This document shows, in pieces, positions 9,893-49,822 of a stretch of 64,000 nucleotides of DNA. The notes under the pieces were generated by a model. The model worked only from the letters and a program-made list of their open reading frames with translations, was not told the DNA's origin and ran no database searches. Origin of the DNA: Tribonema minus (taxonomy: Eukaryota; Sar; Xanthophyceae; Tribonematales; Tribonemataceae). The position numbers were made by a program, and so were the translations under genes. Position 1 is the stretch's first letter. Each line of letters starts with the position of its first letter. The stretch spans positions 496,001 to 560,000 of the forward strand of contig JAFCMP010000541.1 in the NCBI GenBank assembly GCA_017506865.1, written 5' to 3'.

Positions 9893-11272
9893 ATGAAGAC
9901 CTTGGAAACCTACTTTGAGAAAGTTGAGCCTGCTGCAAAGCCCAAACGACGACGGAAGAAGACTGCGAAGCGAGCGACCGGGGTAAGCAACAGCAGAGCT
10001 CTGATTGCCTCTGAGCATGATCATGGGTTTATCGTGCTACTGGACAGGTGAAAGCAGTCCTTGCCGGGTGTCTTTTGGCGGCAGGACCTGTCAATTGTAC
10101 AAAAGCGTGTTTTTGGCAGACATGATTGGTGGGCAACAGAACAGGACCCGACTCAGGCAGCGACGGACCCAATGCTGCGTTTTCCATTCTTGCTTAAAAA
10201 AAACAACCAGCGATTGATTCTTGCACTGTCTGACTTCTGGCAGACCGGCACCTCATGCACACCATGCTGCGCACTGCTAGCCTAAGAACTTGAGGTTTGA
10301 CCACCTGCGCTGAGTGCTGCGCCGCTCCCGCTTACCTCTCATGCCAGCCCCTCCAACTGGAGCCCGCCACATGGGAGCACTGCGTCAGCTTCCTCGAGGG
10401 GCACTACCTGCACTGCGGCCTCATCAACACGGAGCTCCGCAGCATCTACCTCGACCTGTTCTCGTGGGACACCTACACGTTCACCGAGAACGCGTGCGCG
10501 ACCGTGGCGTTCGCCGCGCACGCCTGCAACTTTGGCCTGCTCAAGCGCAAGGCGCTGATGCACGCGGCGGCTGCGGTCGCGCCGGTGGAGGTGCTGGACT
10601 ATCTGGAGAAGCGTCTCAATGATGAGGCGTACATCAGCTGGATCAGCTCCAAAATGGCGGCGGCAGCGGCTGCTTGCGGCAGAGTTGATGTGAGTGCAGT
10701 CGATGATGCTCAACCTTGGCTTTATCAAGGCCTGCTTGTCCATGAAACCATGTCGTCAGTTTTACAATGTCAAAGCAGAGTCGAAGTTGACTATGGTGTC
10801 TGGCGCAGCAGGCCACAAGAAACCTGCGCACAGCAGGCCACTCACGAGTTCAATGTTCAGATTGACCCAGTAGGGCCCAGAGCTCAGAGACCATGGTGTG
10901 CCAGTGATCTGCTTGCTGTGCAATTGCTGTGCTAGCCCGGCCTTGCTGGTGATTCCCACTTTGGTGCCTGCTGCTGTGCCAACTTGCGCCTAGTCACCCA
11001 CATCAATTCAATCAGGCGTTGGCCGCAGCAACACGAGAATGGCCATGCAGACAAGCAGCAAAACGGCAATGCTTAGCGACGGCAAATGCTACCTTCAACA
11101 TACCTATGCTCATGTGTGCTTTATTGCAATGTACACGTACGTACGTTTCATTGCTCATTTCGCTCTGCCCCCCACCCCGCGGCGGAGCAGGTACTGGCCT
11201 GGATTCACAAGAGGGAGGGGTCCTTGTGGAGCACTAAGGCCCCCGTCGCCGCTGCTGAGAATGGCCACTTGG

Positions 11273-11660
11273 GCGCTCTCAAGGTTGGTGCTTCAGATAC
11301 CTGTGCTAGGGACGTTGTGTGACGGGTTAGGTCAGGGTGACGGTTAGGGTTACCGTTCAAGTTCGAGGAAGTTGCTTCAAATTCTTGAGAGTTGACGTAC
11401 CTGATGTACATGAGGGACATGCCACGCTTGAGGTACTTCAACAAACTTGCTTCAGATACCTGAGCTAGGGACGTTGTGCGAAGGGTTAGGCTAGGATCAG
11501 GTTCAGTTTAGGTTAGGTTTAGGCTAGGCTAGGGTTAGGTTAGGATTAGGGTGAGGGTGGAGGTTACGCTCTCAAGGTCGGTACTTCACATAGTTGAGAG
11601 TTGAGGTACCTGATGTACACGAGGGACATGCCACGCTTGAGGTACGTCAATGAACTTGAG
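11273..11660 (+). repeat. Duplicated exon-3 donor region and flanking intron, ~200-bp unit
   Basis: The end of exon 3 (GCTCTCAAG followed by GTTGGTGCTTCAGATACC) is echoed at about 11569-11577 as GCTCTCAAG plus GTCGG. The sequence TTGAGAGTTGA...GGGACATGCCACGCTTGAGG occurs at about 11394 and again at 11594. CTTCAGATACCTG.GCTAGGGACG occurs near 11292 and 11450. TTAGGG-like strings lie between the copies. This is a tandem duplication running across the 3' end of exon 3 into its intron. Confidence 0.7.
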
Positions 11661-12278
11661 CCGGCAGTGCTCAGCATGGCACAGGAGCATGCGACGCGCA
11701 TGACGTCTGCGTACTCAGAGTGCAGCAGGCGTTGGTCCAAACCCACTTTTGTGAGCGAGCAGCGCTGGCAAACTCAGAAGAAGCATGACATTTTGAGGGC
11801 GAGGGAGAAGACGTTTTTGTGTACTTTTGAGATCTGATCTGGGTCTCTTGGCGTGTACAATACCCCTATGAGATGTACAGTATTTACAAGTATCCATTCC
11901 GTGGGAAGTCAGATGTGTATCTAGCCTTGTAGTTGAGATACGATACGTATTTGCGATATGTTGAGTGCAATGGCAGGGGGGTCAGCAGAGCATGTTACTG
12001 TTTTTGGTGCCGCCAATCAACAACCAACGCGTCTTGAAGTGCCAGATGGCTGCACGAGTTGCCCCAGCCCCCCCTCTCCCCCCTGCGTGCTCGCACACAA
12101 CCTCCGTTGATGGCACTCACAGTGGCGCACAACGCACAGCACGCACGAGCGCGCCCCCGGCGCCTCAACTTCAAGTCTTCGCTGCGCGTGCCGCACCTTT
12201 GAAGTTGACCCCCCCTCCCCCCCACGCTGCGAACGCGGCAACGGTCCTCATCGCCGCTGCCTCACGCTCCCGCCTGAT

Positions 12279-12322
12279 TGATTCATTGATTCAATCAATC
12301 AATGAGTCGATCAATCAATGAT
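12279..12322. repeat. TGATT/AATCA simple-sequence tract
   Basis: About 44 bases consist almost entirely of TGATT and its complement AATCA, in both orientations, so the strand can fold on itself. It lies in the intron before ankyrin exon 4, just upstream of the partial exon copy at 12366. Confidence 0.75.
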
Positions 12323-12348
12323 TGATGGACAGATTCGCGCGGCCACTG

Positions 12349-13323
12349 CCGCCGCCGCTGCGCAGTGGCTGTACGCCCAAGCCGACCTGCTCTACAGCAT
12401 AATTGACTGATTTGCCGCCGGTGCTGCCACCGCTACCGCCGCTGCCGCTGCCGCCGCTGCGCAGTGGCTGTACGCCAAGGCCGACCTGCTCTACAGCAGC
12501 TCCGCGCGCAAGGGCCTGGGCGAGTGCCTGGCGGCGGCGGCCGGCGGCCCGTCACGTGCGCGTGATGGAGTGGGTGCACGATGACGCGCTGCCGGAGGCG
12601 CGCGTGAAGCTGGAGCGGGGGGAAGAGCACGCGGCGTGCGCGTGAACGCGGCGGCGTTCAACCAGCTTGAGGTACCCTTTTTATCAATAAAAGCTTCTAT
12701 ACCATGTACATGTAGATGCTGTACTGCTTTATACTAATTTAAAAAGTGATGGAGTGGGTGCGCGACGACGCGCTGCGGGAGGCGTGCGTAAAGCTGGAGC
12801 GGGGGGAGGAGCACGCGGCGTGCGCGCTTGCGGCGGCGTTCAACCAGCTTGAGGTACCCTTTTTTTTTATAAAGAAGCTTCTGTATAAAGAAGTTTTCAT
12901 TAGTTGAACTTATCACTAAAAAAGCAACACGTTTGTGAACAAATGGAATTGTAGTGGGTGCGCGACGACGCGCTGCGGGAGGCACGACTGGAGCTCGAGC
13001 GGGGGGAGGAGCACGCGGCGTGTGCGCGCGTGGCGGCGTCCGTGGCGGCGTCCAACCAGCTTGAGGCACTCTTTTTGTCATAGAAGTAGTACAAGTTTCT
13101 ATACATGAAAAATTCAAATATATACTGCGAAGTATATTTTTTTGTTGCTAAGCTGATAGTCTAGATTTGTTTCCTAGAGTAGTAATATGTAAATGTAGAC
13201 TGGGTGTTTCTCAATACAGATTGAAACTGAAATTAATACCAAAGTTTGGTTGCGGACCGCACACGCCTACTCGAGTTCTGTGCACTCCTCATCAAGACGG
13301 GGTTGTTGTCAGGGCTTGCTGGT

Positions 13324-13354
<31 letters not shown>

Positions 13355-13399
13355 GGGCACGCGCCGCGCGCAAAGTCGGCGGCGTTTGACCAGCTGAAG
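12349..13399 (+). repeat. Tandem partial copies of ankyrin exon 4
   Basis: The 5' part of exon 4 (acceptor CGCAG then TGGCTGTACGCC) occurs at 12366 and again at 12465. The 3' part, encoding VMEWV.DDAL.EA...LERGEEHAAC...FNQLE, occurs four times. Donor-equivalent positions follow 12671 (GTACCC), 12853 (GTACCC), 13065 (GCACTC, GT lost) and 13399 (GTACCA, the most eroded copy). AT-rich spacers separate the copies. The second copy of the 3' part (12746-12853) is open throughout, whereas the copy contiguous with the 5' part carries two frameshifts. Alternative use of the intact copy is conceivable but not shown. Confidence 0.85.
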
Positions 13400-15284
13400 G
13401 TACCAGTTACAAAGCGCATGACTTTTGAGGTCGTACCAGTTTGCGTTCAATGTATTCACATCAAGACATGATTGCGCATACAAGGATTTTATTTTCAGAG
13501 CTGTCTGGCACTGACGCGCTCTCGCCAGGTTTCGCATCTTTAGCGCATTTTCCCTGAATTCATGAATTTACCGAGCGTTGAACTCATGCATGAATGGCGA
13601 CCGCGTTGCGCTGCTTTTCATGCAGGCCCTCCAATGGTTGCGCAAGGTGGATTTGTTCGTCCCCAGGTACCAGTGGAATTCCGACACCGTCACAGCGGCG
13701 GCGCGGACGGGAAGGTTCGTATTTCAAAGTTGAAGTTACATTTGGCTTACGCTGAGGGTTAGGGCGTGTCACAATAACAAATCTGGCGCGTGCACATTGA
13801 TGACCTTGTGTACGTTTTTCACATTAGGGCTTTTGTGATCATACGTCACAGCCGCGGCGCGGACTGGCAAGGTTTGTGATTTTGGTTAGGGTTACGTTCG
13901 GCTTACGCTTAGGGTCAGGGCATGTAACTGTAACAGTTACAGTTTTGGCGCGTGCACGTCGCCAAATCCCTGACCTTGTGCGTTTTTCACATTGGGGCTT
14001 TCATGATCATACGTTGCTGCCTACAGGGCGTGCGAGGCAAGAAGTCGTGTTCATGCCATCAGTTCATCTGGAAGTCAAGTGTAGCTTAATAGCGGCCTTG
14101 TCCATGCCATCAATTCATCTGGAAGACAAGCTTTTTGCGCTCCACGGTTGCCCACATTGGGCGCAGGTTCACAGGGATGCAGTGCATTTTGACATGCACC
14201 CTTAACGAACGCAGATACGATTTTACAATGCTTGCATATTTGTAACTGTACTCCTATCATTCATTAATATAAGTCCACAGCTCACAATTTCAAACACGAA
14301 GAGCACTTCGACGTTGCAGTTGCACCCTTGCGCTTCATGCTGTTCCTGTCTTGCCAAATTTGTTGTACACAAGTGTTGAACCTGAATTGTCGGCTCTGAG
14401 ATACCACAATTACTAGTACAATGTGATTGGCGAATGTTTGTTCTTCAGGCACTACAAAAATGTCGACTAATTGTATTCTGTGGGACTGCAACTGTGACCA
14501 AGTGCATGCACCGCGCTAGCTGGCAACACTGCTCAAATTCTGTACCTTTGACTGCGTCGCTGTCAAGCATTGACACTCACTTTCCCTAGCACTGTATTCT
14601 GGGCAAGGCATGGTCAAGATGCACCGGAAGAAAATGTTGACATTGTATATATATATGTTGAAGCCCCGGCAGAGCTTTTACAGCGAGGTCAAGATGTGCA
14701 AAAAAAATGTTGAGAAACAAACACATATACATCGAAGTATACTTCTATTTCTATATATTGAAGCCTCAGCAGAGCAGCCCACAGCAACGCCGCCGACCCC
14801 CCCGCGTGCCTCGTACCCACCGCACCGTGCACGCTCAGCACCGCAGCGCTGAAGTGGGCACTCGAAAATGACGCGCCCGTGAACATGGCTGCTGCCAGCT
14901 ATGGCGCCGCCGAGTACGGCCAAGTGGAGGCGCTAAAGGTGAGCACACAACTCAATATAGAAGTAGAAGTATGAGTTCTCGGCCCCGTTACAGGGTGGCT
15001 GAAACGGCGAGCTGACGCGCTCTGTGCATTGTTGCTGCCACAACGACCTTATTAGGGATCCGTTCGCCGCCCCCTGTGTCTGTTTTTCTGTCAAAGTGGT
15101 CACTGGACTTGTGTGTCGATCGCGATCGATCCTGATCGCCGACACGAGCGGTGATACTTTGAAGTCCTTGTTCACAGCGAGAGTATTGTCACACGATGCC
15201 AATCATAGTCAAAGAAGCCGCAGCGCAGTCACGATGCACAATGATAGTCAAAGAAGATGCGACCGCAGTCACGCCTCATCCCCC

Positions 15285-15366
15285 CCCCCCCCCCCCCAAA
15301 TTGCCCTCCCCCACCCCCAAATTCCCCCCCAAAATTCCTCCCCCCCCCCCCAAACTCTCGCCGCAG
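15285..15366 (+). promoter_or_regulatory. Long C-rich tract before an acceptor
   Basis: A run of 17 C is followed by further C-runs separated by AAATT/AAACT, ending CCGCAG at the acceptor of exon 15367. This is best read as an extreme polypyrimidine tract. The same arrangement recurs in the head-to-head pair, for example before 31077 and 36260 on plus, and before 27838 and 21825 on minus. Confidence 0.6.
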
Positions 15367-15539
15367 CTGCTCCGCACCCACGATGCGGACAAGTTCCCGA
15401 AGGACAAACGCCTCGCGACGCTGGCCTCGAAGTGCGGCTGCGTCGAGACGCTGCAGTGGCTGCTAGACACCGCGCGCTGCGCCTGGGACGCGGACGCCTG
15501 CTGCAGGGCCGCCGCCGCGAATTGGAACACCGGCTTGCT

Positions 15540-16090
15540 GCAGTGGCTCAAGGCGCGGGGGGTGACGTTCCCCGCCGACATGTGCGAGGTGGCGTGGACG
15601 AACGGGAGAAACTGGCTCTTCTGGTGAGAAGTTGTCGTTTTCGGGGAGCTGCGTGTCGATCATGCAGACTCTGACCCTCATTCTGGCTCCGAACGCGTGC
15701 AGGGCGGCTTGGAAGAAGCAGGTCCTGACCAATAGAATCTATCAATTACTTCAACTCTAAAGTGCCTCAAGGGGCGGGGGGTGACGTTCCCCGCCGACAT
15801 GTGCGAGGTGGCATGGACGAACGGGAGAAACTGGCTCTTCTGGTGAGAACTTGTCTTTTCGGAAAGCTGCGCGTCGCTCACGCAGACTCTGACCCTTGTT
15901 CTGGCTCCGAACGCGTGCAGGGCGCCTTGGCAGAAGCAGGCGGTACTGATGTTATGACGGAATAGAATTTATCAGTCGCTTCAACTTTGAAGTGGGCTCA
16001 AGGGGCGGGAGGTGACGTTCCGCGGGAGGTGACGTTCCCCGCCGATGTGTGCGAGGCGGCGTGGACAAACGAGAGAAACTGGCTGTTTTG
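15540..16090 (+). repeat. Three tandem copies of the 3' part of ankyrin exon 7
   Basis: The exon end encoding GVTFPADMCEVAWTNGRNWLF, with its TTCTG/GTGAGA donor, is present at the true exon end (15623). It recurs ending at 15842 (GTGAGA) and at 16090 (GTGAAA), with periods of about 219 and 248 bp. The copies begin with the same CTCAAGGGGCGGG stretch and are preceded by TTCAACT-type intron sequence. The third copy contains an extra internal duplication of GGAGGTGACGTTC. Confidence 0.88.
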
Positions 16091-18275
16091 GTGAAAAGCT
16101 GAAGCGTCTCCGGAAGGAAAGCTGCGTGTTGATTCATGCAGACCCTAACCTCTGAGCGCTGCTCTCAAACCTCAACTGTGCTCCTAGGAGCATGCGGGAA
16201 TGGAGCGCCGTCGCCGCTGTCATCCCAGAACCCGTCCTTGCGACGTTCTCTGAGACATGCCTGCAGACCCTCACCCTGAGCACTGCTGCACATGCTTTTC
16301 TGCGGTGCCTCTACTCCTCGGCCATCCTAGGAGGTCACACAAACGGAGCGCCGTCGTCTACGCGTCCGCGGGACCCGCCTGCGCGTCCTCCCCTGATACA
16401 TTTTTTTGCATACCCTCACCCTGAGCGCTGTTGCACACAGGGTGTAACTCTAGCCTGAGATCAGCTGCTCTCAGGCATCCCTACGTACCTGCCCCCACCC
16501 TGAGCGCTGCCTCACGCGCCTCTTCCAGGTGTGCCTGTAGCCTGAAACCTCAACTTGAAGTACTATTCGTACCCCCTGACTCTGAGCACTGATGTGCACG
16601 CGCGTGCTCTCGCAGGTGGCTCTACGATGAGGGCTGCCCCGTGAGCAGATGGCTGGAACTGCGCATGGTGCGCGACGGTGCTGTGGGCACGATCCAAACC
16701 CTCAATGAGAAGGGGCACGCATTCCACGACGGCGGCGACACGTTCTGCGAGGTGGCTGCGGCAAACAACCAGGTGGGAGCTCGCTGTTGCAGTCCAGTTG
16801 AAGTTCAGAACTTGAAGTGTGCGCGGCGGCGACGGCGACGCCATCCAGGCCCTCAATAGTGCTTTCTAGTCAGAGAGAAGCCAAAATTTGAGCACTTGCA
16901 AGGGCATGGGCAAATCGCCCCCCAGCACAGTTATGATGACGCAGGCACTACCTGCTTCAGGGCTTTGAAGTTCGCCAGATGTGACGCATGCGGTCACTAT
17001 TTCCGGGAAAAAGCGTTCCCTTGCCTTTGTTGCATGGCAGGTTTTACAATGCTGCACCCGCTGGGCACCAGTAGGTACTGGCGCGTAAGAGACATCACAA
17101 GGGCATCGCGACCCCCCTTGCGGCACCACCAAATTTTACCGCGCAAAGTACAACTCAACTACGAGTCGGGGGGGTCTGAGCAATGCCACCGCACGCTGAG
17201 CGCTGCGCTCTCCCCGCTGCCGCACAGGCACATATGATCAACTACCTCGTGAAGGCCCAGAACTTCAAGTTGGACGGCAGGGCCATGAGCGCCGCTGCAC
17301 AGGGGGGGCACGCGGCCGCGGCGCGCGCCCTGGTCTATAACAGCTGCCCGTGGGACGCGCGCGACGCGCTGACGGCATCTCGATGTGCTGGCGCTGCTGC
17401 ACTCATGCCTGCCGACGGGGTGAGTACAACATTGATCATCCACAACCATGAATGGTCGTGAAGTCAGTTTACTCAACATAACCAATACATAAATCATCCT
17501 GGGTAGCATAATGAGGGGTGCCTAGAAGTGCTTCCGCTCTTGTACTCAAGCCTGCAGCCGGGGTGAGTTCACTAGTGAATGCAAACAACGATAAATCGGT
17601 GTGAATGGTGAGTCGCTGAGATGGGACGAGGGACATCTGCATGCACCCGTATGCTTTTACTCGTGCTTGGCGTCGAGGTGATGATTAACATGAGCAATGA
17701 TGAACTGTCATGAATGTGAAGTGCTCGTGACTGAGTGAAGTGTTTGAGGATAACAAGGTGCACCTTGATGTGCTTCCTGGGTGATGCATGATTATTGTTC
17801 ATGATCTGTCATGAATGATGAAGTATTTTCAATAATACATGATCAACGCTGAATTATAATCAAAGAGGAACAATAAATCATATCCAACGATCATCTTTGC
17901 TGAAGCAACAAGGTTCAAGTTGAGTTTTGCAGGTCACTTATTGGCAGGGTACGAGGGCTAAAGGTAATGGGCATGAGACAGCTGCTCTGCTTTTGGCTCT
18001 TGTGGCTGCTGCTTAACTTTACAGCGAAACCCAACCCTGATCGGACAGCTGGTGGTTTCAGGGCGAGCGTTGCAGTGGGTGTGCAGTCATGTGCCTGTTG
18101 TACGCCCAGGCGTCGTCAATGCATGTACGCCACTAGCGCACCTCTCAGTACCTGTGCGACTCACGAGTGTCACACTAACCCTAACTGAACTTCGCCGAGA
18201 TGCGCGCTGTATCGACGCGTTCCTCACCGTATCCGCTCACACTATCCTCGACTGTGGTGATGCGCGCAACCGCAG

Positions 18276-18820
18276 CGAGCACGCGCGACCATATGCGCGC
18301 AGGCGGCGGCAGCCGGCAGGCTCGACGTCCTGCAGTGGCCGCGGCTGTTGACAGGCGCGATGACAATGTTTTTTTTTTGTCTTCATTCTTAAAGCTGTTG
18401 ACAGGTGTGATGACAATGTTTTATTTAATTAAAATCTCCATGCGATCCGCGTCCTCGTCGACCGTTGCTCACAGGGAGCACGACGCGGCCATATGCGCGC
18501 AGGTGGCAGGCTTGACATTCTACGCTGGGCGAAGCTGCTGACAGGCGCGATGACTATGTTTCTTTGTTCTTCATTCTCAAAGCGGTTGACAGGCGTACTG
18601 ACAATATTTTCTATTCTTCCGCGTCCTCGTTGACCATTGCTCGCAGAGAGCACGACGCGGCCATATGCGCGCAGGCGGCAGGCTCGACGTCCTGCAGTGG
18701 GCGCAGCTGTTGACAGGCGAGATTACAATGTGTGTTTTGTTCTTCATTCTCAAACCTGTTGACAGGCACGATGACAATGTTTTGTATTCTTCCGCGTCCT
18801 CACTGACCGCCGCTCACAGG
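18276..18820 (+). repeat. Three tandem partial copies of the 5' part of ankyrin exon 10
   Basis: Acceptor plus exon start (GCAG then GAGCACGAC.C.GCCATATGCGCGC) occurs at 18276, 18475 and 18647, before the full exon at 18820. Spacings are 199, 172 and 173 bp. Each partial copy continues for about 70-80 bases of exon and then breaks off at CTGTTGACAGGCG or similar into intron sequence containing GATGACAATGTTTT. Only the fourth copy continues into the complete exon. Confidence 0.88.
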
Positions 18821-19929
18821 GAGCACGACGCAGCCATATGCGCGCACGCGGCGGCGGCGGGCAGGCTCGATGTTCTGCAGTGGGCGCGGCGCGAGGGCCT
18901 CGCATGGGACGAACGCACCTGCCGCGAGGCGCTCGTGAATGGCCACATGGACGTGCTGCAGTACGCGCTGGATGAGGGTGGCGCCTGCAGCGACTCCGTG
19001 CAGCGCGGCTTAGAGCTGCACCACGAGGTGCGCTGCTGCTTAGGGTTGGGGTTAGGGTTAGTGTTTGAGGGTGATGTGCCCCCCTCGTAAAAGCGGTACA
19101 TGCCATGGCGCAAACCGTGAGTCCGCACGGTGCGGCCTGCGGCAGCATCACGAGGCGCGCTGCTGTGTTGTATTAGGGTTAGGGTTGCGGTCCCTCCTGG
19201 TGACAGCAGTGCCTGCAACGTTTTGCAGACGAAGGCAGCACTGCGAGATGAGCTTTTTGGGAGGTGGCGCCGGTGCGCGCTTCACTCAGCTTACGACAAC
19301 GAAGATGAGAAGCACAATGTTGATACGTCTGGTTTAATACTTGACCACTAACTGAGTGCGGCGAGTCGGTACCTCGCGCCCTGGAGCAGCACTGCGAGGT
19401 GCGCTGCTGCTTAGGTCTAGGTTTAGGGTTGGGGTTCCCCCTGATGAAAGCAGTGCCTGCCGCCTTTTTGCACATGAAAACCGCGACAGTCGTCGGCATA
19501 GACAAATGCGCACAAATGAAATGCTGGCAACGTACCGAGTTCACCGCACCAAACACTGACTCAGAAATGCACTTGGGCGCGCCTCTTTGAGTTTGCTGAC
19601 CCCTTTCTAGGCATAGCGTCAGGGTACACGCGTGAACTGCCCCTGACGCATCGTCCGCTGCGCCCTGGAAGCCCTTGCGCAGCAGACGCGGATTGGCACT
19701 GATTCTTGCGCATGGAACAACCCTGGCGCACACCATCATTGAATGTTTCTTGCGCAACGCACGGTGCCTGCAGGCCGCCGCGCGGCAGAAAGAGGAGCTG
19801 ACAAAACTGGCGGAGCAGGAGAGGCAGCGCAAGGAGGCGGCGCGGCGGGAGCGCATCGCCGAGAAGCGCGCCGCGTGCGCGTGCTCTGACTACAGCTGCC
19901 GCTGGCGGTGCCAGTGGGACCGCGCGTGA

Positions 19930-35700: not shown

Positions 35701-36478
35701 TGAGGTGAGACATGTGACACTTCAACATTGCCCTAGCCCTGACCCTAGCCCTAGAAATGAGAGTCTTGTGTGCATGGGCGTAGCACATATGCTGCTGCAA
35801 CATACATTATGATATGCCCTGGGTATGGTATCATGTGGTGTGCACGCGACTGATTGGAGACTGACTGCAGCATGTGGGTGTCAGCGCGCTCTGGCATGTG
35901 AGGTCAATGCGCGCTGCTTGCGTCGTTTGGCCTTGAAGCTTTCAGCCTGCCCCAAAACCTGATAATGCGGTAGGTGTATTTCTTTGCCACCGTGACGTCT
36001 CCGCCGCCTCAATGACTACGACGCACTTCGAACTTGCTCTTGGTGCCCTCGCCATTGGCGATGAACAGCACGCAACGTGCGGCTTGCCAAACAATACAAG
36101 CCGCTACCTCAAGACGATGGCCCTGAATCACCCCTCGACAGCATGGCGCTGCTGAATCACACAGGCGCCGAGGCCGTGGAGCCCTCAGCGAATTTCAACT
36201 CCAGGCCGCGACTCACCCCTCAGCCGCTCCCCCCCCCCCGCTCCCCCCTCCTTCCACAGCCCATGATCACCCTCAAGGCGCTGGCCGCAGTCCCCGTCGG
36301 CGGCGACAAGCAGTGCGAGACGTTCGGCTTGCCCGACGACGCCGTGTACACGCGTGCCGGCTGGTATCCCGCCACCTACTGCTGGGCGCACCCCGCGGAG
36401 AACGTGTACGAGATCTCCGTCACGGATTTCACGTACCACGACTATGCGACGGAGTGCCCGGCGCCGCCCGCTGCGTGA
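29796..36478 (+). CDS. Secreted TTHB210/DUF5602-like protein, plus-strand paralogue
   Basis: Eight exons: 29796-29934, 30342-30571, 31077-31299, 32300-32358, 33631-33760, 34897-34969, 35650-35704, 36260-36478; total 1128 bases, 375 residues plus stop. Exons 3-8 have exactly the lengths of the minus-strand paralogue (223, 59, 130, 73, 55, 219), and exons 1-2 differ by multiples of three. An ATG at 29787 would add three residues. The N-terminus (MRHILTGASLSFLCTAAVPV) followed by ASA/HG is a good signal peptide. Conserved blocks are PHYDIHFFMIPP (about residues 156-167), DPVTGFPRPGPW, the exon-5 motif ECADC, PANGMHLAPANS, FPDGAPGCENDADG and FFEPMITLKAL (junction of exons 7 and 8). The last joins precisely to a TTHB210-like signature, which supports both the splicing and the family call. 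It is probably extracellular or in the secretory route. Function is unknown; the conserved His/Asp cluster could bind a metal (inference). Confidence 0.83.
33481..33631 (+). repeat. Partial copy of exon 5 upstream of the real exon (plus-strand gene)
   Basis: TTGCAG followed by GCATGGAGTGCACCGACTGC at 33481 mirrors the true exon 5 start at 33631. It lacks one G after the acceptor, so splicing there would break the frame, and it diverges after about 60 bases. The segment from GTGCATTATCAGATC to the true acceptor is also shared with the minus-strand paralogue. Confidence 0.82.
34485..34969 (+). repeat. Decayed tandem copies of exon 6 (plus-strand gene)
   Basis: NGPPGCADDGD at about 34490 and acceptor plus FHDGAPA at 34693 precede the true exon 6 (34897-34969). 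Spacing is about 204 bp each. The 34693 copy has lost one base relative to the real exon and runs into a stop. The flanking intron segment 34750-34890 also matches the minus-strand gene in inverted orientation. Confidence 0.8.
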
Positions 36479-38055: not shown

Positions 38056-41000
38056 ATGCGTCGGTCAATCCGTGCTGCTGTCGGAGGTGCATGGCTGCTG
38101 CTCTCGTTGCTAACGATAGGCCTGACCGCCAGCGGCGACGCTGCGGCGCTGCCGCCACTGGCGCGGCACACAGAAGCGCACCAACAACGCGTACTGCAAT
38201 CAGACGCCAGGCTGCCTCCGCTGCGGCTATCACAGCGCGATGAGCGAGAAGCTGATAGTGACGAGCGCAAGGACGAGCACCAACAACGCGTACTGCAATC
38301 AGACGCCAGGCTGCCTCCGCTGCGGCTATCACAGCGCGATGAGCGAGAAGCTGATAGTGACGAGCGCAAGGACGACGAAGACGCTCAGCAGAAGCTGAAG
38401 CAGCTGCTGCAAATTACGCTACCTCATGAAGGCACCATATGGAACGTGGACGACCAGCAGGAGGTGTCTTGGGTGAAGCCCACGTGGGTTAAGCACGTGG
38501 ATGTGGTTTTGGTCGCCCTCAAGCTCGGCTTCACCCCCAGGCGGTCCCTAATTGCGTCCAAGACCCCTCTGTCCAGCATGTCCCTCTTCCCCCTTCCGTA
38601 CGTGCGGCCAGACCTTGTGTCCGACAACGAGAGTGTGGACGACTTCATGTGGTACATTGCGGTGGAGGCGGTTCCATCGGGACCCAGTGCGCAGGCAAGT
38701 TCAAACTTGAGTAGTTTGAGTGCGCATCAGCTGCATGTGAGGTGCTGCCGATGTGTGCGCAACTGGTATCTTATGCTCTGACTTGCGCTAGAAAAAGAAG
38801 TTGACAGTAGCAGCGCAGTGTTCGCTTCAAAAAGGTGTCAGTAGCTGACGCTGAGCAGCGCTTTCAACAACTGCAAATTGTAGACGAGACTGTATGTAGT
38901 GGCAATGATTATGCTCATTCATTGCCCCCCGCTGTACTCCCCGATAGGGTTGCCCTATTTTGATGCAGCAGTGTTTGTCACTGACATCAAGTAACCTACT
39001 CCCGTGATGGATGGCAGCACTGGCGGCAATCAATGTGGTGTCGTGTCAGAGTCCTTGGATCATACATGGAGACTTGACATCGTGTGGGCCGAAATCACCA
39101 GAGAAGGAGAACGTGCCTTCCGAGCCTCATCATCACAGCATTGCGGCATATGGTGGCGACTTGTGTGCCCGCTGGCGGCGTGATGTGCCTGTGTCTCACG
39201 CGAATGAGAAGTACTTCATCGCCACGTAGCGATATCACAAGTAGCATGTTTTTGAGCATTTTCCTGCAACAAGTCTCATCGCAGCAAGTGGCAAGCTGGC
39301 CATGTGGGCGTTTCTGCGCCCTAAACGATATGCATCACTATTGACAGCACGGTAGCTCCGGCCCCTCAACTAGAAGGCAGGCTGCAGCGTGGCAGCCACT
39401 GTGGGTTGCCTCTCATGATGCAACAGCAACGCCAAACGGCTTGCTGACTGCGCGCGCCCTAGGTAGCGCTGTTGCGGCCTGCTGCGGACCACGCTGTTGA
39501 GGTGCTAGAAAGCCAGCAGCGCGGTGCCAGACTTGATACGTATTGAGCATCAACCAATGTTACTATCAGCGGTGCTGATCCAGAACAGTCCGCTTCTCAC
39601 CGGTGACCCGATGCGAGCGCTCGTGCTGTCAATTTTGAACTATGACAGGATATGCACACACGCTGTGACGGTAGATGGCGCTGTTGTTGCCTGCCGTGCC
39701 CACACCGCTGGGATGGTAGAAAGTCGACGCAGGACAGGCTGGCAAAGAGGTCCAACGGTCAGCGAAACTGCTCCAAATTTGCACTGCACACTCCGCTCCT
39801 GACGAATAATCTGATGTAAGCGCCCGAGCTATTGATTGTGACAGCCATATGCACACATTTTCATGACGGCTGAATTTCATACGGCGACTCTCCTTTGCGC
39901 AGAGCGAATCCTTCACCATGCACGCGGGGCGCCCGCCGCAGCAGGCAAACGGTGACAGACATTTGCATGCATTGTATTGACTACCGAACTTCGTGCCGTG
40001 ACTCTCCTTTCTGCAGAGCGAGCCCTTCACCATGCGCGCGGGGCAGCCGCCGCAGCAGGCGAACGCAGCAAGCATGGGGTTCAGCCTCAAGGCAGGGGGG
40101 CTCGGGGGGGTGGTCTTTGTGGGCGTGGTGGTGACGGTGCTGCTGAGCATGTGCTGCTGGCGGCAATACCGCAGGTATGCCTCGTGTAGAATCATGAAAA
40201 AATTGGCGGAAGTGGTCATTACTTCAACTTGTGGCACAAAACACTGGAAGTCTGCTGGCCATGTGCTGCTGGCGGCAATACCGCAGGTATGCTGTTGTGG
40301 AATGAAAAACTGGAAGTAGTTGTGACTTCAAGATTATGGGCGGGGGTGGTGTTGGCGCTGCCGGCTGTGTGTTGAGCGCTGGCAACGCTGCACACATGTT
40401 CAGAACTATATATATTAGCGGTTGGAGTAAGTCACCGGCAGCAACTGTCAAAGTGTGTGCATGTTGGCTACTTCAAGTATGATTGATGTAGGCACTGCTG
40501 CAGTTGTTGTAAAGGGTGCCAAACGGTGAGCCGAGTGGCGACAGTGCTGCTGGCCTTGTGATGCTGCTGACGGCAGTGTTGTGCGCACACCACTGCGTCA
40601 CTACCTGAAGTCACTCCTTGAAGTTAACGCTTGAAGCAGTGCTTTAAACGACCTCACAGCAGTTCCAGCCAGCACGAATAGTGCATTTTGTGACAGAGGG
40701 GGCAGTGTTGATGCATGAAGTGACCATGGCAGTGCTGCATTGATCGTGTGCTGTCGCCGCATTCATTCAGAAGTGCCATTGGCGGCACAACTTGCCGACC
40801 GTTGCTGCTGTGAGAAGGGCAGTCACATTATCCCGGGATGTGGCTGGCAGTAAGGGTCGTGCTGACGCGTAGAGAGCCGGCAGGCTCTCCGCAGGCATAG
40901 CGCGCGTACTCTCAAACATCGACGCCGCACGTAGTCTGTTGGTTGATGTTGTAGAAGTACTTGAAGCTGCGGCCTGACCAGGAAGGGTGTTGTCGGCTGC

Positions 41001-43591
41001 ATGATGACTGCGCTGCTGGCCATGTGCTGCAGAGCGGTTGTACTGCAGGCGCGCCCAGCACGCAAAAAAACTGTCCCTTCACGAAGCACTTTTATCGCAA
41101 TGCGTGCGCGTGAACAGAATTCAAAGTTAGCAAATCCAGACATCGGCAGCAGGTGATATATTGGTTGAAGTTGAAACAATGCTTGAAGCTGCAACCTGAC
41201 AAGGAAGAATGTTCTAGGGGCTGTATGATGATGCTCCGGGCCATGCGCTGCAGAGCGACTATGTTGCAGGCGCGCCCAGCACGCAAAACAAGTCACTCAC
41301 GAAGTTGTACAGCAGTGCATGCGCGCGAACAGAATGAAGTCGGCAGCTTTTGGTGCTCGCGCAGCGCTCAAAGCCCGACTGTAGGCCATCACCATGCGTG
41401 CACTGTGCCTTGATGATGACTTGTTTACCCTGTGGCTGTGCAAGCTTGCAGCCGCTTTCAAGCGTTGACTGCACAGTATCGTAGCAGCAGCATCAGCGGC
41501 CGCAGCGCTAGCACTTCAGCATGGATACTTGTACGAGTCTGAGAGGCGAAATGTGGAAGCCTAGGTCCACACCATTTATTGGGGTGCTATCGCTCAGCTC
41601 AACCCTGAGACCATTTACCGCAACATGAAAAACCAGTTTCCCGATCATGATGTACATCCATCATTTTACGGCCTCAGTTACTGCAGACCTTTACGAATGG
41701 CCACGGCCGCCACGTCGCGTTCACAGTCAGTGCCGCGCCAGGTGCCGTACTCCAGAGCATCGGACAGACTGCATATGTATGTGTAGAGCACGTCTCGCAG
41801 TCATGATAGTTTCTCATTTTCACAAACCACAGATAGGTACTTGTAGTCGACTGTGCTCAAAACTGCACGCTGCAGCACAAGTTCTTGTAAACACAGGTCC
41901 AGGTGTCCATGTGTCTGCACATCTATCAACACACTTCAACTCCATTCACGCCCCCCCATCTCCCCCATCACCTCCTCCATTCGCGGTCCACACCTCCCCC
42001 ACCAAACCCTGGGCATACATCAACACTGTACTTGAACTTCAACCCCTGCTCCAGCTCGTCGCCGTGCTGCGCGCGCGGAGCAGACGCGCCTCAGAACTGC
42101 GCGCCGCGCTGCAGCGCAGCGTAGATGCGTCACTCACGCATCACCACCCAACTTCAACTTTACCCCCTCTCCCCCCCCACCCTGCTCCCCCCTCAGGCGG
42201 CCTCACGCAGGCGTCGCGACCAAGCCACGCCTCGCCGCTGCCTACCCCATTCACGAGGCGGCTGCGGCGGTGCACCTTACGACGCCCAAGGGGCCCTTCC
42301 CCAGCCCCCGTGCGGCATCGCGCACGCGGTCGGGTCGCGGCCACGCCACCGCTGCGGCGACGCCCGCCGCCGCCGCGGCGCCGATGTGAGCTGCTTGAAC
42401 TTGCAGGGTTTGGGGTAGGTTTTGGGGTAGCGTTAGAGGACGTCGCATCGTCGTGCTGACGTGAGCTCGATGGAGTTGTGGGGTTTGGGTCAGGATTGGG
42501 GTAAGGGCTGGAGAGCGTCGCACCGTGGCACCTAGGGTTAGGGCTGGAGAGCGCCGCACGGTGGCGCCGATTGTGAGCTCGACAAGTTGCAGGGTTGGGT
42601 TCAGGTAGGGTTGGAGCGTCTCATGAACGCTCAGCGGCGCGCTCAGACCGTGCAGTTGTCGTCATGACTGCATTGAAGTAGCGCCGGCGGCGTCCCAGCG
42701 GTCGCATGGCGGCGGCGGCAGCTGTCTCGCAGCCGAACAGCGCGGGGCGCCGTCGCCGCGCGCCGATCAGCCGATGTGCATCCCAGCAGCACCAAATCAT
42801 TTCAGTCTCCGTCGTGGCCATCCACAGTGCGCCTCACTTTCAACACCGGCTCGTCCTGCAAGCACTCCCAAGCGCCAACAGCAATGTGTCATGTGCGCTG
42901 CGCCGTCTGCGTGCGCGCCGCCGGGGGCTGCTGCGCGCAGCCTCACCCCCTCTAATGACATTCCCGTGGCAGGACGTCACGCACTGCGGGGCCTGTCGCG
43001 CGTGCCCAGACTGCCTGCATGCCGAGAGCAGGCGCACAGCAAGCGCGCACTTTCCCCACGCCGCACTGCTCACCGCAGCCGCCTCCTCCATCCCAAACAC
43101 CTCTCAACCCCACCCTGCTCAACCCCCCGCGCGCCGCCAGCAGCGCGCACGCCTCACTCACGCCGTCCCTCCCATCCGTTCGCGCCTGCCGCCGCCGCCG
43201 CCGCCACTGCTGCCGCCGCTGCCGCAGGAGCTCGCCGGTCGAGGCCATCGTGTGCGGCCCCGACGGCGGCGGCGGCCGCCGCGCCAAGAGCGCCGGCGCC
43301 GCTGCCGTCGCGCCGCCCAGCCGCAGCAGCAGCTTTGGCGGCAGCTTCAAGTGGCCGTTCGCGTGGCCCAAGTGGCGCGGCGAGCTCGTAACCGCCGCCG
43401 CCGTCGCGTCGCCGGGGTCGTACGCCGCCGCCGCCACGGTCGCGCAGCCGCTGGCGGAGCTGCCGCCGGCCGCCGCCGCCGTCGCCGCAGCGGCAGCTCA
43501 GCGGCACCGCCGCACGCGCACGTTCGCCGCCACGCCGCCGCGCGCGCACGCTGCAACGCGCGCGCATTGCGACGCGGAGCTCGGCCTCTGA
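38056..43591 (+). CDS. Kre9/Knh1-like single-pass membrane protein
   Basis: Inferred exons 38056-38694, 40017-40174, 42197-42385, 43228-43591 sum to 1350 bases (449 residues plus stop) with consistent phases. The start follows the ATG that opens a signal peptide (MRRSIRAAVGGAWLLLSLL). Residues about 40-105 are a charged 33-residue unit present twice. Residues about 120-219 resemble the Kre9/Knh1 N-terminal Ig-like domain: LPHEGTIWNVDDQQEVSWV, then a strand-rich stretch, YIAVEAV and a closing SEPFTM. A hydrophobic helix at about 241-260 (GGVVFVGVVVTVLLSMCCW) is followed by a basic, Ala/Pro-rich tail. The tail exons 3 and 4 are compositionally biased and less certain than exons 1 and 2. Intron 1 has a GC donor (CAG/GCAAGT). 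Kre9-like domains occur in cell-wall or surface proteins of fungi and other protists, so a cell-surface role is likely but unproven. Confidence 0.68.
38179..38376 (+). repeat. Near-identical 99-bp coding tandem duplication
   Basis: A 99-bp unit (38179-38277) is followed directly by a copy at 38278-38376 that differs at about one position. It encodes 33 residues (HQQRVLQSDARLPPLRLSQR and a Glu/Asp/Arg-rich end) just after the signal peptide of the Kre9-like gene. The frame is kept. The near identity implies a recent duplication. Confidence 0.92.
39903..40286 (+). repeat. Duplicated acceptor and donor ends of Kre9-like exon 2
   Basis: The exon-2 start (CAG then AGCGA.CC.TTCACCATG) occurs at 39903 and, as the true exon, at 40017, 114 bp apart. 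The exon-2 end (ATGTGCTGCTGGCGGCAATA, CCGCAG, GTATGC) occurs at the true donor 40174 and again at 40286, 112 bp away. Both boundaries of the same exon have thus been duplicated outwards into the flanking introns. Confidence 0.9.
42340..42605 (+). repeat. Repeated donor region of Kre9-like exon 3
   Basis: The exon end plus GTGAGCT... intron start recurs three times, with donor-equivalent positions after 42385, 42461 and 42572. Each is followed by a G-rich stretch (GGGTTTGGGGT or GGGTTGGGTT), and the later copies are preceded by GAG(A)GCGYCGCA.GGTGGC-type exon-like bases. Copies two and three are diverged. Confidence 0.6.
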
Positions 43592-45506: not shown

Positions 45507-48500
45507 TCACTCGCTGCCGCTGCGCAGCCGCGGCGGCGGCGGCAGCGGCGGCGGCGCGGGCGGCGGCGCGTCGCACGCCGCAGCGCACAGCGCCGCCAGC
45601 GGCAGCCCCGCTGCCAGCAGCACCCAAGAGCCCGCCGCAGCTGCCGCCGCCGCAGCGCCTGCCGCCACCATCGCCGGCACCAAACTCTGCAGCCGTCTTC
45701 TGTCCGCGTGTGCTGCTGGCAGCCTCCAGGCGAGAACGGTGGCGGCGGCGACGGCGGCGGTGGCGGCGGCGGCCCAGCGTGGCGGCAGCGCGGCGGCGCC
45801 GGCGGCGGCGCACGCGAGGCACGCCAGCAGCGCGGCGTCGCGCGTCACGGCGGTGGTGGGCGTGGTCGCCGCCGCGTGCGCCGCCGCGGCTGCGAGCTGC
45901 GCGCGCGGGGAGATTGATCGGGTGTTGTGTGCATCAGTGCTTGCTGGCGACATGTGTACAGTAGCTTGTCACTTCATGTCAGGCTCGCAGTTGAAGTGTA
46001 CGCCAGGCGGCGTTAAGCGTTGCCGCCGCTGCGCACGCTGCTGCCAGCTGCGCGCATGGAACCGCGCCAATGCGGCGCATCAGTCAGCGCATCCTGCGGT
46101 CATTGCTCCACGTTTCCCTGCCGCAGGTATCGCTGCACTCCCAGACTACCTAACGGCGGGTCTAATTTGCGGCTTTCTGGGTCAGCCGTCTGAAGTGCTA
46201 GAGCGTGCAGTAGGTGTGCATATCCCTAATTGTGGCAGTGTCCCGGTGAACTTGAGGTTGGGCACTTCACACTTGCAGTTGATGTGTAGTTTTGTGAAGA
46301 GAGATTTTCATGTCAGGTCACTGGCTTGAGCGAACTCGGCTGGCATGCCCACGTTTGCTGTGGACAGTTCATATCACTCCCTGCCCGTCCCAAAGCACAC
46401 GGGTTGCATTGCCTCGGTCTGCCTCTGTCCACTTTGCACAACGCACTGTCGAGGTATCATGCATGAGACAGCCTTTGTGTTCTTCCAACAAACCGTTCCC
46501 TGTCAGCCCATAGTTCCAAGAGTTCAAAAGAGTGCCTGAACTCATAACGTTCTCGCCGCTACAGCAGATGCACTGCTGTAGCAGATGCCGCCGCCGCCGC
46601 TGCTCCCGGCACGCACTCCAAACCAGGTGACACAATTCACTGTTCACTACATCGCAGCCTCGCCAGCTCCAGCTCCAGGCGCACGCCTCTACTCAGAGCT
46701 TGACGCCGACATCACTACCAGCGCCACCACCCTCCTACATACTCACCCGTCTCTCGCGCCGCTCGAGCTGCCGCAGCCGCCGCTGCAGCGCCGCGCCCTC
46801 CGCCGCCGCCGCCGCCTCCGCGCCCCGCACGGCGCCCTCCCGCTCGTCCAGTGCCGCGTGCGCAACGCTCAGCGCCTGCGCGTCCTGCAGCGCGCGCTCC
46901 TCGCGCGCCGCTGCCGCCGCCGCGCGCCGCCGCAGCTCCTCCTGCGCCGCCGCGGCTGCGGCAGTGACAAGGGGCGGGCCGGTGCGTGAGGTGAGACCGA
47001 TGGCGCTGTCGCGTGGCGGATGACTAACAAGTGTGAGTGCACGCATCGCTCAGCGCCTGCGCGTCCTGCAGCGCGCGCTCCTCGCGCGCCGCCGCCGCCG
47101 CCGTGCGCCGCCGCAGCTCCTCCTGCGCCGCCGCGGCTGCGGCAGCGACAATGGGCGGGCCGGTGCGTGAGGTGAGACCGATGGCGCTGTCGCGCGGCGG
47201 CGGATGACTGACACACGTGAGTGCATGCAAGCTACGGCGCCTGCGCGTCCTGCAGTGCGCGCTCCTCGCGTGCCTTTGCCGCCGCCGCGGGTTGCCGCAG
47301 CTCCTCCTGCGCTGCCGCGGCTGCGGCGGCAGCGTGCGCGGCGGATGCGCGATCTTAGACTGATGGCGCTTCCGCGCGGTGGCAATAGGCTGCTGATGTG
47401 AGTGCGCGCAAGCAGCCGAGCGCCGAGACAGCGTGGTGGTGAAACGGACTGCAGGGGGCTGCATTTTGCAGCGCATGTGCATCCTGTTAGGGTCAGGATC
47501 GTGGCAGGAGCAGCTGCTCCTGCGCCGCCCCAGCTGCAGCGGCAGCAGCAGCGGCGGCACCGGCACGGCGCGCGGTGAGGGTGCGAGGTGCCGACGATGA
47601 TGACGTCGCGCAACGACAGCCGAGCGCGAGTGGAGTGCGTACGTGCGCACCGGCTTAGTAGTGGTGATCCGAATGCAGAGGTTGCAGTGCTTGCCTCTGT
47701 GCGCTCTGCAGCACGTGTCCCGCTTGCACCACTGCCTCCGCCGCGCGCTGTTAAAGCGCTTTGCGTGCCACTGCGGCTTCGGCAGCAGTCCGGCATGCCC
47801 CTCCTCACAATTACGATGCCTTGCAGCAGGTGCTGCTGTGATTGAGATGTGTTGTCGCAGCGGCTGCCGCCGTCGCAGCTTGACGTCGCAGCGAACACAG
47901 TCCCGCTGAACGTCTTTCCCAGCTTCCCCCCCCCCCCCCCCCTCTCCCGTCCATCTCAACATGCGACGCTCCTCCGCCGCACGCTGATAGCAGCGCTCAG
48001 CGCACAGGCGCGCACCTGCCGCGTCGCCGCGCTGCATGTGTGCCGCCGCGTGTGCACGCGCGCGCTCCGCCGCCGCCTCCGCCACCGCCGCGCGCCGCTC
48101 CGCGCGTTCCGCGGCCTGTTCCGCGGCGGCGGCACGCTCCTCGGCGCGCTCCGCGGCGAGTTCCGCGGCGACGACGCGGTCCTCCGCGCGTTCCACGGAC
48201 TGCTCCGCGGCGTCGGCGCGGTCGTCGGCGGCGCCGATCGCCGCCTCGAGCTCCGCGTTCCGCGTCTCGACCAGCCGCAGCAGCTCCAGAACCTGCGCGC
48301 GGACGGCAGTGGGTGTTGGGTGGCGTGTCGTTGAGCCATGTGCATTGTACCTCACGGAAGGAGTGCGCGCGCACCCTGCATCGCTCGGCGGCCAGCGGAA
48401 GCGCGCAGTGGCTCACGGGCCGCGAACGCGCGCCCCGCCCTCTGTGACAGTTGCGGTCCGTGAGCGAGAGACTACTGCGCTCAGCACCGCCTCACCATCC

Positions 48501-48803
48501 CCCCTCCCTCAGCGTCCACCGCAAACTTCAGGAACCCTTCTTGCTAAACCGGGGCTGCGGACCGTTGCCGCAGCAGCTGCCCTACATACATACCTTTGTG
48601 CGCGGCCTCGAGCCGGCGCGGTGCGAGTGCCGGTGGTACCGGCCCGGCGACTGTGCGCCGCCGCTGCCGCCGCCGCCGCCGCCAATGGAGTCAGATGCAG
48701 TGCCGGCAGGGCTGTAGGAGCGCGCGTGGTACGCCGTGGAGCGCTGAGGCGTAGCGCGGCGCGGCATTGAGTGCTGCTGCTGTTGCTGCGGCGGCGGCAA
48801 CTG
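45507..48803 (-). CDS. Ala-rich coiled-coil protein with hydrophobic C-terminus (5' end unresolved)
   Basis: Minus-strand exons 48803-48594, 48292-47983, 46955-46747 and 45896-45507 join in frame (1119 bases, 372 codons plus stop). The first recognised exon is Gln/Ser/Gly-rich (QLPPPQQQQQHS, SIGGGGGGSGG). The second and third are Ala/Glu/Arg heptad-like coiled coil, for example ELLRLVETRNAELEAAIGAA and QEELRRRAAAAAAREERALQ. The last is very Ala-rich with several hydrophobic stretches (LLACLACAAAGAAAL, WVLLAAGLPLAALCAAA) that could be membrane helices. The donor after 47983 (GTGCGG) is chosen by phase and is the weakest point. The true start and any earlier exons were not found. No family is recognised. 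A membrane-attached coiled-coil scaffold is only an inference. The convergent neighbour ends at 43591. Confidence 0.5.
46747..47560 (-). repeat. Tandem partial copies of the coiled-coil exon 3 start
   Basis: Minus-strand acceptor plus exon start (GCAG then CCGCGGCGGCGCAGGAGGAG) occurs at the full exon (46955) and at 47136, 47320 and 47533, spacings 181, 184 and 213 bp. The 47136 copy keeps about 110 bases of exon almost unchanged up to CAGGCGCTGAGCG, then breaks into intron. The most distant copy is the most diverged. Confidence 0.85.
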
Positions 48804-49822
48804 CTGCGGCGAGTCGTGGTACGGGTGCTCGCTCCAGTCGCGTCGCCGGCCGCGCGGCGGCGGCGGCGAGGGCTGCGCGCGAGCGCGACGCGCGTGCAGC
48901 GGTGGCAGCGCTCAGGCATTGGTGTGTACGGCGTGTGTGTGTGTGTGTGTCGTGTTGAAGAAGGCATGGCACGGGCTCGCATTGAACGCTACTGCATTGT
49001 GACGCCTGTGCAGGAGCTGCCGCAGCGAGTCGTGGTGCGGGTGCGTGCTTCAATCTTGTGCCCTGCCGCACGGCAGTGGTGGCAAGTGATCGGCGGCGGC
49101 AGCCCATTGTCCAAAGCTTCCTGCTGCAAGAGGACGCAGGGGAAGCCTTGCCTATATTCTTCAACGACTGGGTGCAAGTGCATGCAATTGTGTACCACAC
49201 GCCTGAATGCGTACATCTGAACTTACTGCTAGTTGAATGAAGCCAATGTCCTTGCCGGCAGTGGCACATGTCTTAGGGTAGCTCATCTAGGTACTGGTGA
49301 AAGCCGTTGTTCTCTGGTGTACCGACTGATGTGACAGGGAACTTGCCTAACCCTGCTGAGTACATTACGCAGTCTCACGAGTGTACATAGTTGCGAATTA
49401 CTGCCTCACCGGTGTGGTGCCATGCTGTCGCCGTCTCTTCCTTGCACTAGCCAGCAGCTTTTCCAGCTCGTCCAGCGGCGCACTAGCCATGCTTCTTGCG
49501 CCACTCTCCGCCAGCCTAGTGCATTCCACTCTCCCACCAAAGGCTTATGCCTCTATTTTCAGTTGCAGACCGTATCTACAGCTGATGGCTCCATGAACAA
49601 ACAGTGAGTAGCCATTTGCAGCTTCGTCAGTGCGAACTGTGCGCTCTGGCCTTACGCCAGTGTCTGGTTCGCTGCTTGCCTTGCCTCCTTCTGAACAATG
49701 CAACTGCCACTTTCCTCGAGGAAGTTTGGCGTGTCACCATTTCAGGTTGGAGAAACAAGCGCGCAGGGAGGCAAAGCGTGCCACAGCAGTTGCCGCACCT
49801 GTTGCGCAGCGACAGCAGTAAT
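48804..49822. other. Region between divergent genes, with a duplicated acceptor block
   Basis: This 1-kb region lies upstream of both the minus-strand coiled-coil gene and the plus-strand ATPase gene. Around 49015-49060 it carries a diverged copy of the block before the 48803 acceptor (minus-strand CCGYACCACGACTCGC.GC then GCAG), about 216 bp away. It also holds a short TG run near 48932. The missing first exon of the coiled-coil gene may be here, but I could not fix it. Confidence 0.45.

What the first reader, a model, noticed from the sequence alone, without database searches (positions are those of the whole stretch)
9893..49060. Genome-wide habit of tandemly duplicating exon-intron junctions
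At about a dozen junctions across five genes, a block spanning one splice site plus 30-110 exon bases is repeated 2-6 times inside the adjoining intron. Spacings are 50-330 bp and divergence increases with distance. Donor-side examples: 11283/11577; 12671/12853/13065/13399; 15623/15842/16090; 27616 array; 40174/40286; 42385/42461/42572. Acceptor-side examples: 18276/18475/18647/18820; 25547/25395; 24415/24102/23878; 34490/34693/34897; 33481/33631; 39903/40017; 47533/47320/47136/46955. Tandem duplication across an AG/GT-type site is a proposed route of intron gain and extension. Here it appears to be pervasive and repeated, which would be an unusual mutational regime.
Basis: partly seen in the sequence, partly recalled or inferred. 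Interest (0 to 1): 0.9.

Follow-up and report, generated by a model that had tools for sequence, protein, structure and literature searches.

The report
Exon edges repeatedly copied into introns
In this alga-like genome, short stretches straddling the border between an exon and an intron have been duplicated head-to-tail many times, leaving decaying copies of exon edges inside introns and making those introns longer.

Summary
Of 13 listed sites, 9 hold up well, 2 (12671, 47 kb) are real arrays whose copies may still be coding, and 2 (11283, 42385) are weak. In two kinesin genes on other contigs, 6 of 10 and 7 of 8 internal junctions carry a direct repeat spanning the splice site; a D-glutamate cyclase gene from a random 8-kb sample has 3 of 8. 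Over five genes with supported exons, 20 of 24 local repeat clusters span a junction (7.1 expected); 12 of 15 at ≥85% identity (2.5 expected). All 60 local clusters counted in 16 sequences are direct. Copies look non-coding: 18 of 19 exon-part indels break frame. Paralogous exons lack some arrays. Against: the effect is patchy (0 of 46 and 0 of 30 predicted junctions in two sets), ten random regions show no cluster enrichment, and the decline towards intron interiors is clear only in the kinesins. Best reading: small tandem duplications concentrated at exon edges, tolerated because the outer splice site still works, lengthening introns. Single such events are published; ten searches found no genome where they are common. 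No RNA evidence was available.

The parts
12562..13404 (+). donor-side array: copies of an exon end plus GT and intron start; which copy is the real exon is unclear and copies 2 and 3 keep open frames
15542..16150 (+). donor-side array; real donor after 15623, copies at about 15842 and 16090; exon edge 96% and 88% identical in the two main copies
18271..18890 (+). acceptor-side array; real acceptor before 18820, three frame-broken copies upstream (the gene finder calls parts of two of them exons)
23847..24582 (-). gene A exon 6 acceptor (exon 23806-23878) with two upstream copies
25332..25550 (-). gene A exon 5 acceptor (exon 25266-25395) with one upstream copy, offset 152; the BLAST match passes the junction by only 3 bp, so it is not counted as spanning
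27317..27642 (-). gene A exon 3 donor (exon 27616-27838) with an array of about 52-bp units; not found in gene B
33454..33691 (+). gene B exon 5 acceptor (exon 33631-33760) with an upstream copy, offset 151
34679..34931 (+). gene B exon 6 acceptor (exon 34897-34969) with an upstream copy at about 34693
39838..40065 (+). acceptor-side 114-bp tandem pair, adjacent copies; real acceptor before 40017
40140..40331 (+). donor-side pair; donor after 40150 by the gene finder
46861..47557 (-). 181-bp array in a coiled-coil gene; copies may be genuine coding repeats, so ambiguous
11274..11592 (+). weak donor-side pair, about 10 exon bases
42377..42596 (+). weak donor-side pair, 34 bases
21607..29457 (-). 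gene A: exons 29337-29457 (uncertain), 28337-28569, 27616-27838, 26369-26427, 25266-25395, 23806-23878, 22831-22885, 21607-21825
   Evidence: exons 3-7 have the same lengths as in gene B
29802..36474 (+). gene B, inverted paralogue of gene A: exons 29802-29930 (uncertain), 30347-30571, 31077-31299, 32300-32358, 33631-33760, 34897-34969, 35650-35704, 36260-36474

Best explanation
Small head-to-tail DNA duplications (offset mostly 80-280 bp) arise preferentially at exon edges. Each duplicates roughly 20-95 bp of exon end, the splice site and some adjoining intron. The duplicate is tolerated because the outermost, original splice site still defines the exon, so the copy lies inside the intron and decays. 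Repeated rounds build arrays of 2-6 copies that lengthen introns from their ends inward. Shown: direct-repeat geometry, junction position in the genes tested, frame-broken copies, arrays absent from paralogues. Inferred: that the excess is mutational, and that staggered breaks or nicks near exon edges, filled in and end-joined, are the molecular route. Assumed from general splicing knowledge: that the outer site is the one used.
For: 20 of 24 local repeat clusters in five supported genes span a junction (7.1 expected, maximum 14 of 5000 shifts); at 85% identity or more, 12 of 15 against 2.5, maximum 9. The terminal 45 bp of exons match the adjoining intron at 18 of 46 junctions, against 0 of 46 on the reverse strand, 0 of 46 against one randomly drawn intron of another gene each, 0 of 26 scored against the exon's other intron, and 1 of 9 for mid-exon. 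In kinesin introns 48 of 164 tiles starting within 405 bp of a junction are locally duplicated against 4 of 66 further in. 60 direct and 0 inverted clusters in 16 sequences (its filter leaves out perfect palindromes, of which one search showed one at 4999-5104). Exon reach 21-95 bp, median 42; offset median 148 bp, one of 20 as large as 533. Exon-part indels in copies: 18 not multiples of 3, 1 multiple. A young 81-bp tandem across a donor, 97.6% identical, in a Pfam-verified gene from a random sample. A paralogous exon 89% identical to 18820-19027 over 179 bp lacks copies and has a 378-bp upstream intron.
Against: Cluster-shift test on ten random regions: 10 of 23 against 9.5 expected, no enrichment. 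Patchy: 0 of 46 predicted junctions in C538 flanks, 0 of 30 at kinase loci; 4 of 28 junctions in genes A and B by the strict test. The decline of intron tiles away from junctions is absent in genes A and B (12 of 230 near, 3 of 32 far) and weak in random regions (39 of 666 near, 5 of 136 far, with 6 and 2 on the reverse-strand control). Some near-identical blocks end abruptly, such as 69 bp at 97% in L059 with 164 bp between the copies, which one tandem event does not explain; gene conversion may contribute. The kinesins were chosen for long introns. No transcript data.
Confidence: 0.58

Rival explanations
1. Small tandem duplications fall evenly over genes. Those inside exons are purged, and those touching an exon stay visible longer because one copy is the slowly evolving exon, so junctions only look preferred.
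For: Local duplication is common in random DNA: 9 of 10 random 8-kb regions have some, and there the cluster-shift test finds no junction excess. In the kinesins exon tiles are detected more often than the first intron tile (12 of 18 against 4 of 18), as this bias predicts, and in genes A and B intron tiles show no decline away from junctions.
Against: Pairs at 85% identity or more, where the bias is small, show the excess more strongly (12 of 15 against 2.5). Kinesin intron tiles, compared only with intron, are enriched near junctions (48 of 164 against 4 of 66).
Confidence: 0.26
2. The copies are useful: spare or decoy splice sites, poison exons, or stepwise splicing in which each donor-side unit, beginning with GT and ending in AG, is itself removable as an intron.
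For: Decoy dinucleotides are mostly intact: AG 23 of 26, GT 16 of 21 plus 4 GC. Arrays of AGGT dual-specific sites occur in polyubiquitin (PMC10809524, abstract).
Against: Retention is close to what decay of the copy alone would give at 12% divergence, about 77% (my estimate). Copy-to-copy identity is only a little higher on the exon side (0.83-0.85) than on the intron side (0.77-0.82), in a loose alignment whose random null is about 0.75. Frame is broken. Acceptor-side copies (12 of 27 junctions, against 8 of 27 donor-side) would not be removable in this stepwise way unless the exon began with a donor.
Confidence: 0.09
3. A mobile element, introner or repeated gene conversion copies exon edges.
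For: A few high-identity patches end abruptly.
Against: Each array is made of its own exon's sequence; exon ends matched 0 of 46 introns drawn from other genes. A genome search with 9800-19500 found only neighbouring paralogues, telomere-like repeats and simple-looking stretches, though that search skips common words. No inverted local clusters.
Confidence: 0.05
4. Assembly artefact.
For: Little: one exact 99-bp pair (38178-38375) could be one.
Against: Most copies differ by 3-28%, with indels, and arrays differ between paralogues.
Confidence: 0.02

Closest known systems
Junction-crossing tandem duplication in the potato RdRp gene (PMC4974935; abstract and Results and Discussion read)
   Same: A DNA tandem duplication across an intron-exon boundary that carries the splice site along.
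   Different: A single event that produced a new intron, with RNA evidence; here many events at many junctions, lengthening existing introns, without RNA evidence.
Rogers-type intron gain by tandem duplication of an AGGT-containing exon segment (as described in PMC4974935, and in passages seen of PMC2891723)
   Same: Small tandem duplication plus pre-existing splice motifs.
   Different: That model duplicates exon only and makes a new intron; here the block contains an existing junction.
Introner elements (Amoebophrya, PMC7789003, passages seen)
   Same: Introns changing in bulk in a protist genome.
   Different: Those are families repeated across the genome, with direct repeats of 3-5 nt over the borders and inverted repeats of 8-20 nt at the intron ends; here each array is made of its own exon edge.
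Small tandem duplications from breaks with complementary 3' overhangs, filled in by CST and Pol alpha-primase (PMC8355091, abstract)
   Same: Produces the class of lesion seen.
   Different: The abstract reports CRISPR/Cas9-induced breaks and mentions no junction preference.

Membership tests
junction-crossing tandem duplication | direct repeat with one copy spanning a splice site | tested here: met
   20 of 54 junctions in five supported genes
junction-crossing tandem duplication | copies head-to-tail on the same strand | tested here: met
   60 direct, 0 inverted clusters in 16 sequences
junction-crossing tandem duplication | unduplicated state in relatives | tested here: met
   for three arrays, paralogous exons of the same genome lack them; no other species available; two other arrays unresolved
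intron gain by tandem duplication | new intron bounded by the duplicated motif | tested here: inconclusive
   no gained intron was identified and there is no RNA
introner elements | same sequence in introns of many genes | tested here: not met
   exon-edge copies only: 0 of 46 matched a randomly drawn intron of another gene; whole introns were not compared across genes
dual-specific splice-site arrays | same AGGT used as donor and as acceptor | not testable with these tools
   no transcript data

The most novel reading that the evidence does not exclude
In this lineage a duplication process is physically aimed at exon-intron junctions (for example staggered nicks at co-transcriptional structures), and it is the main engine by which introns grow, from both ends inward.
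Probability: 0.38. Interest if true: 0.9.

Novelty: new variant of a known kind. Interest (0 to 1): 0.72.

Why it matters
How introns change length and how new ones arise is argued mostly from isolated cases. A genome where junction duplications of many ages sit in one intron after another (21% of intron bases of the five genes tested lie in local repeats) would let birth rate, tolerance and splicing consequences be measured directly, and would test whether splice junctions are break hotspots.

Tried and rejected
Comparison of contigs C90 and C179 as possible haplotypes: 93% alike over 21 kb, but mostly long frames without introns, so uninformative about junctions. Protein search to name the gene family or organism: 78 candidates, none significant. 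Selection on decoy splice sites: the first count looked like retention (54 of 57 aligned sites intact as GT/GC or AG, 9 more of 66 copies not aligned there), but with exon-only seeding it is near what decay of the copy alone would give. Dating the exon 5 and 6 arrays of genes A and B by copy similarity: ambiguous. Random-region cluster test: no enrichment; the finer exon-edge test on the same regions did show a signal, 15 of 107, in the printed hits from 3 of the 10 regions. Organism not identified; many matches to the chlorophyll a/b-binding family suggest a photosynthetic protist.

Full report
Setting. The window is 496001-560000 of contig C538 in a genome of 158,181,000 bases in 554 contigs. 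Telomere-like repeats of the window match the ends of many contigs. Ninety-two matches to the chlorophyll a/b-binding family suggest a photosynthetic protist. The genome has no relatives in the held set; no annotation or RNA data were available.

Checking the finding. Self-BLAST found about 40 local direct repeats in the window, most between 11 and 49 kb. Reading the sequence at 15.6 and 18.8 kb shows the described anatomy: an intact exon edge with its splice site, and copies of the same edge, in places frame-broken, in the adjoining intron. Nine of the 13 listed sites hold up well; two (12671, 47 kb) are real arrays whose copies may still be coding; two (11283, 42385) are weak.

Testing it outside the window. 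This choice favours long introns. In L058, 6 of 10 internal junctions, and in L059, 7 of 8, have a local direct repeat with one copy across the junction (splice sites refined by hand and). Ten random 8-kb stretches were also fetched: the first eleven of a seeded list of 40, less one on the window's own contig. Nine of the ten contain local direct repeats, covering up to 42% of bases. One stretch (L050) holds a D-glutamate cyclase gene (PF14336, E 3e-76, residues 12-322 of the predicted protein) with an 81-bp tandem across a donor, 97.6% identical, and spanning repeats at two further junctions. Two very short predicted exons of that gene (33 and 19 bp) were left out of its exon list.

Statistics. 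A small gene finder was trained on these sequences. It recovers the kinesin exons but also calls some copies exons. On five genes with homology- or paralogue-supported exons, 20 of 24 clusters span a junction by at least 6 bp each side; 7.1 are expected by sliding clusters within the gene and the maximum in 5000 trials was 14. At 85% identity or more it is 12 of 15 against 2.5 (maximum 9). Spanning repeats occur at 8 of 27 donors and 12 of 27 acceptors, and 5,864 of 27,541 intron bases lie in local repeats. By gene: kinesins 13 of 18 junctions, cyclase 3 of 8, genes A and B 4 of 28. The first exons of genes A and B are uncertain and are included.

An exon-edge test aligned the terminal 45 bp of each exon to introns: 18 of 46 junctions match the adjoining intron at score 30 or more (17 at 36). 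Controls: 0 of 46 reverse strand, 0 of 46 one random intron of another gene, 0 of 26 scored against the exon's opposite intron (the printed 38 includes 12 rows of short exons set to zero unscored), 1 of 9 mid-exon. Kinesin C141 coordinates were up to 3 bp off there and were corrected. On predicted exons: 15 of 107 in random regions (10 of 107 at the higher score, all from L045, L046 and L050) with all four controls at zero; 17 of 91 in the window, with 1 of 58 opposite-side controls positive and no other-gene control; 0 of 46 in the C538 flanks; 0 of 30 at kinase loci. Against the finding, the cluster-shift test on the ten random regions gave 10 of 23 against 9.5, and 5 of 12 against 3.1 at 85% identity or more; long coding-repeat arrays and unverified exons are included there.

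Position profile. In the kinesins the exon-terminal tile matches at 12 of 18 junctions and the next exon tile at 2 of 18; intron tiles starting within 405 bp of a junction match at 48 of 164 and further in at 4 of 66. Genes A and B: exon-terminal tile 5 of 28, next exon tile 0 of 16, intron near 12 of 230, far 3 of 32, so no decline. Random regions: exon-terminal 10 of 106, next 0 of 79, intron near 39 of 666, far 5 of 136, with 6 and 2 on the reverse-strand control. The peak at the exon edge is thus seen in all three sets, the intron decline firmly only in the kinesins.

What the copies are. Exon-part mismatches are spread over codon positions (10.3, 9.1 and 14.4%), and 18 of 19 indels break frame (66 copies, some from predicted junctions). 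Decoy AG is intact in 23 of 26 and GT in 16 of 21, plus 4 GC. Real splice sites are constrained, so only the copy decays; at about 12% divergence some 77% should survive (my estimate), so this is near neutral. Copy-to-copy identity is only slightly higher on the exon side (loose alignments, random null about 0.75, so a weak test). I read the copies as relics rather than exons.

History. The donor array of gene A exon 3 is not found in gene B (score 49 against 15). The exon at 18820-19027 has copies upstream when 17420-18819 is taken as one intron (in one search the gene finder had called copies exons and the row shows none). A paralogous exon 89% identical at C538:491274 has none and a 378-bp upstream intron; another paralogue (8238-8384, 82-84%) has none either. 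The donor array at 15623 (score 85) is likewise missing at two paralogous exons of 74-75% identity (scores 14 and 22). Such arrays thus differ between members of a gene family. Whether the exon 5 and 6 copies of A and B are shared is unresolved.

Mechanism. The geometry says DNA tandem duplication; the copies include intron, so mature mRNA is not the source. The youngest example has about 4 bp of overlap at its breakpoint, and the exact 99-bp pair at 38178 is exactly adjacent. Fill-in of breaks with 3' overhangs followed by end joining is a known route for such lesions (PMC8355091, abstract). Why exon edges are favoured is unknown; break-prone co-transcriptional structures are my speculation. 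A few abrupt high-identity patches hint that gene conversion also acts.

Print. Ten searches of an open-licence library brought up single or few cases (potato, PMC4974935; Drosophila, PMC2891723) but no genome where this is common; I saw listings of the rest. Most subscription papers and bioRxiv are not covered.

Noticed in passing
56314-58843 (+) and L057: hAT transposase frames (Dimer_Tnp_hAT in the second frame); what looks like a second copy lies on the other strand in C538:560001-570000.
   Followed up: no
59391-63998 (-): 1536-aa open frame with reverse transcriptase, RNase H and integrase domains: a retrotransposon pol near the window end.
   Followed up: partly
11482-11550 and 23558-23596: Telomere-like repeats inside predicted introns; the first matches repeats at many contig ends.
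   Followed up: partly
38178-38375: Exact in-frame 99-bp tandem duplication in an open frame.
   Followed up: no
21607-36474: Two divergent copies of a gene form an inverted pair with equal lengths for exons 3-7; one exon frame found no relative in the protein search.
   Followed up: partly
L039-L044: Contigs C90 and C179 run collinear at about 93% identity over 21 kb, mostly long frames with few indels, followed by a roughly 360-bp satellite.
   Followed up: partly
50496-51275 (+): ATPase_2 frame, with weaker nSTAND1 and AAA matches.
   Followed up: no
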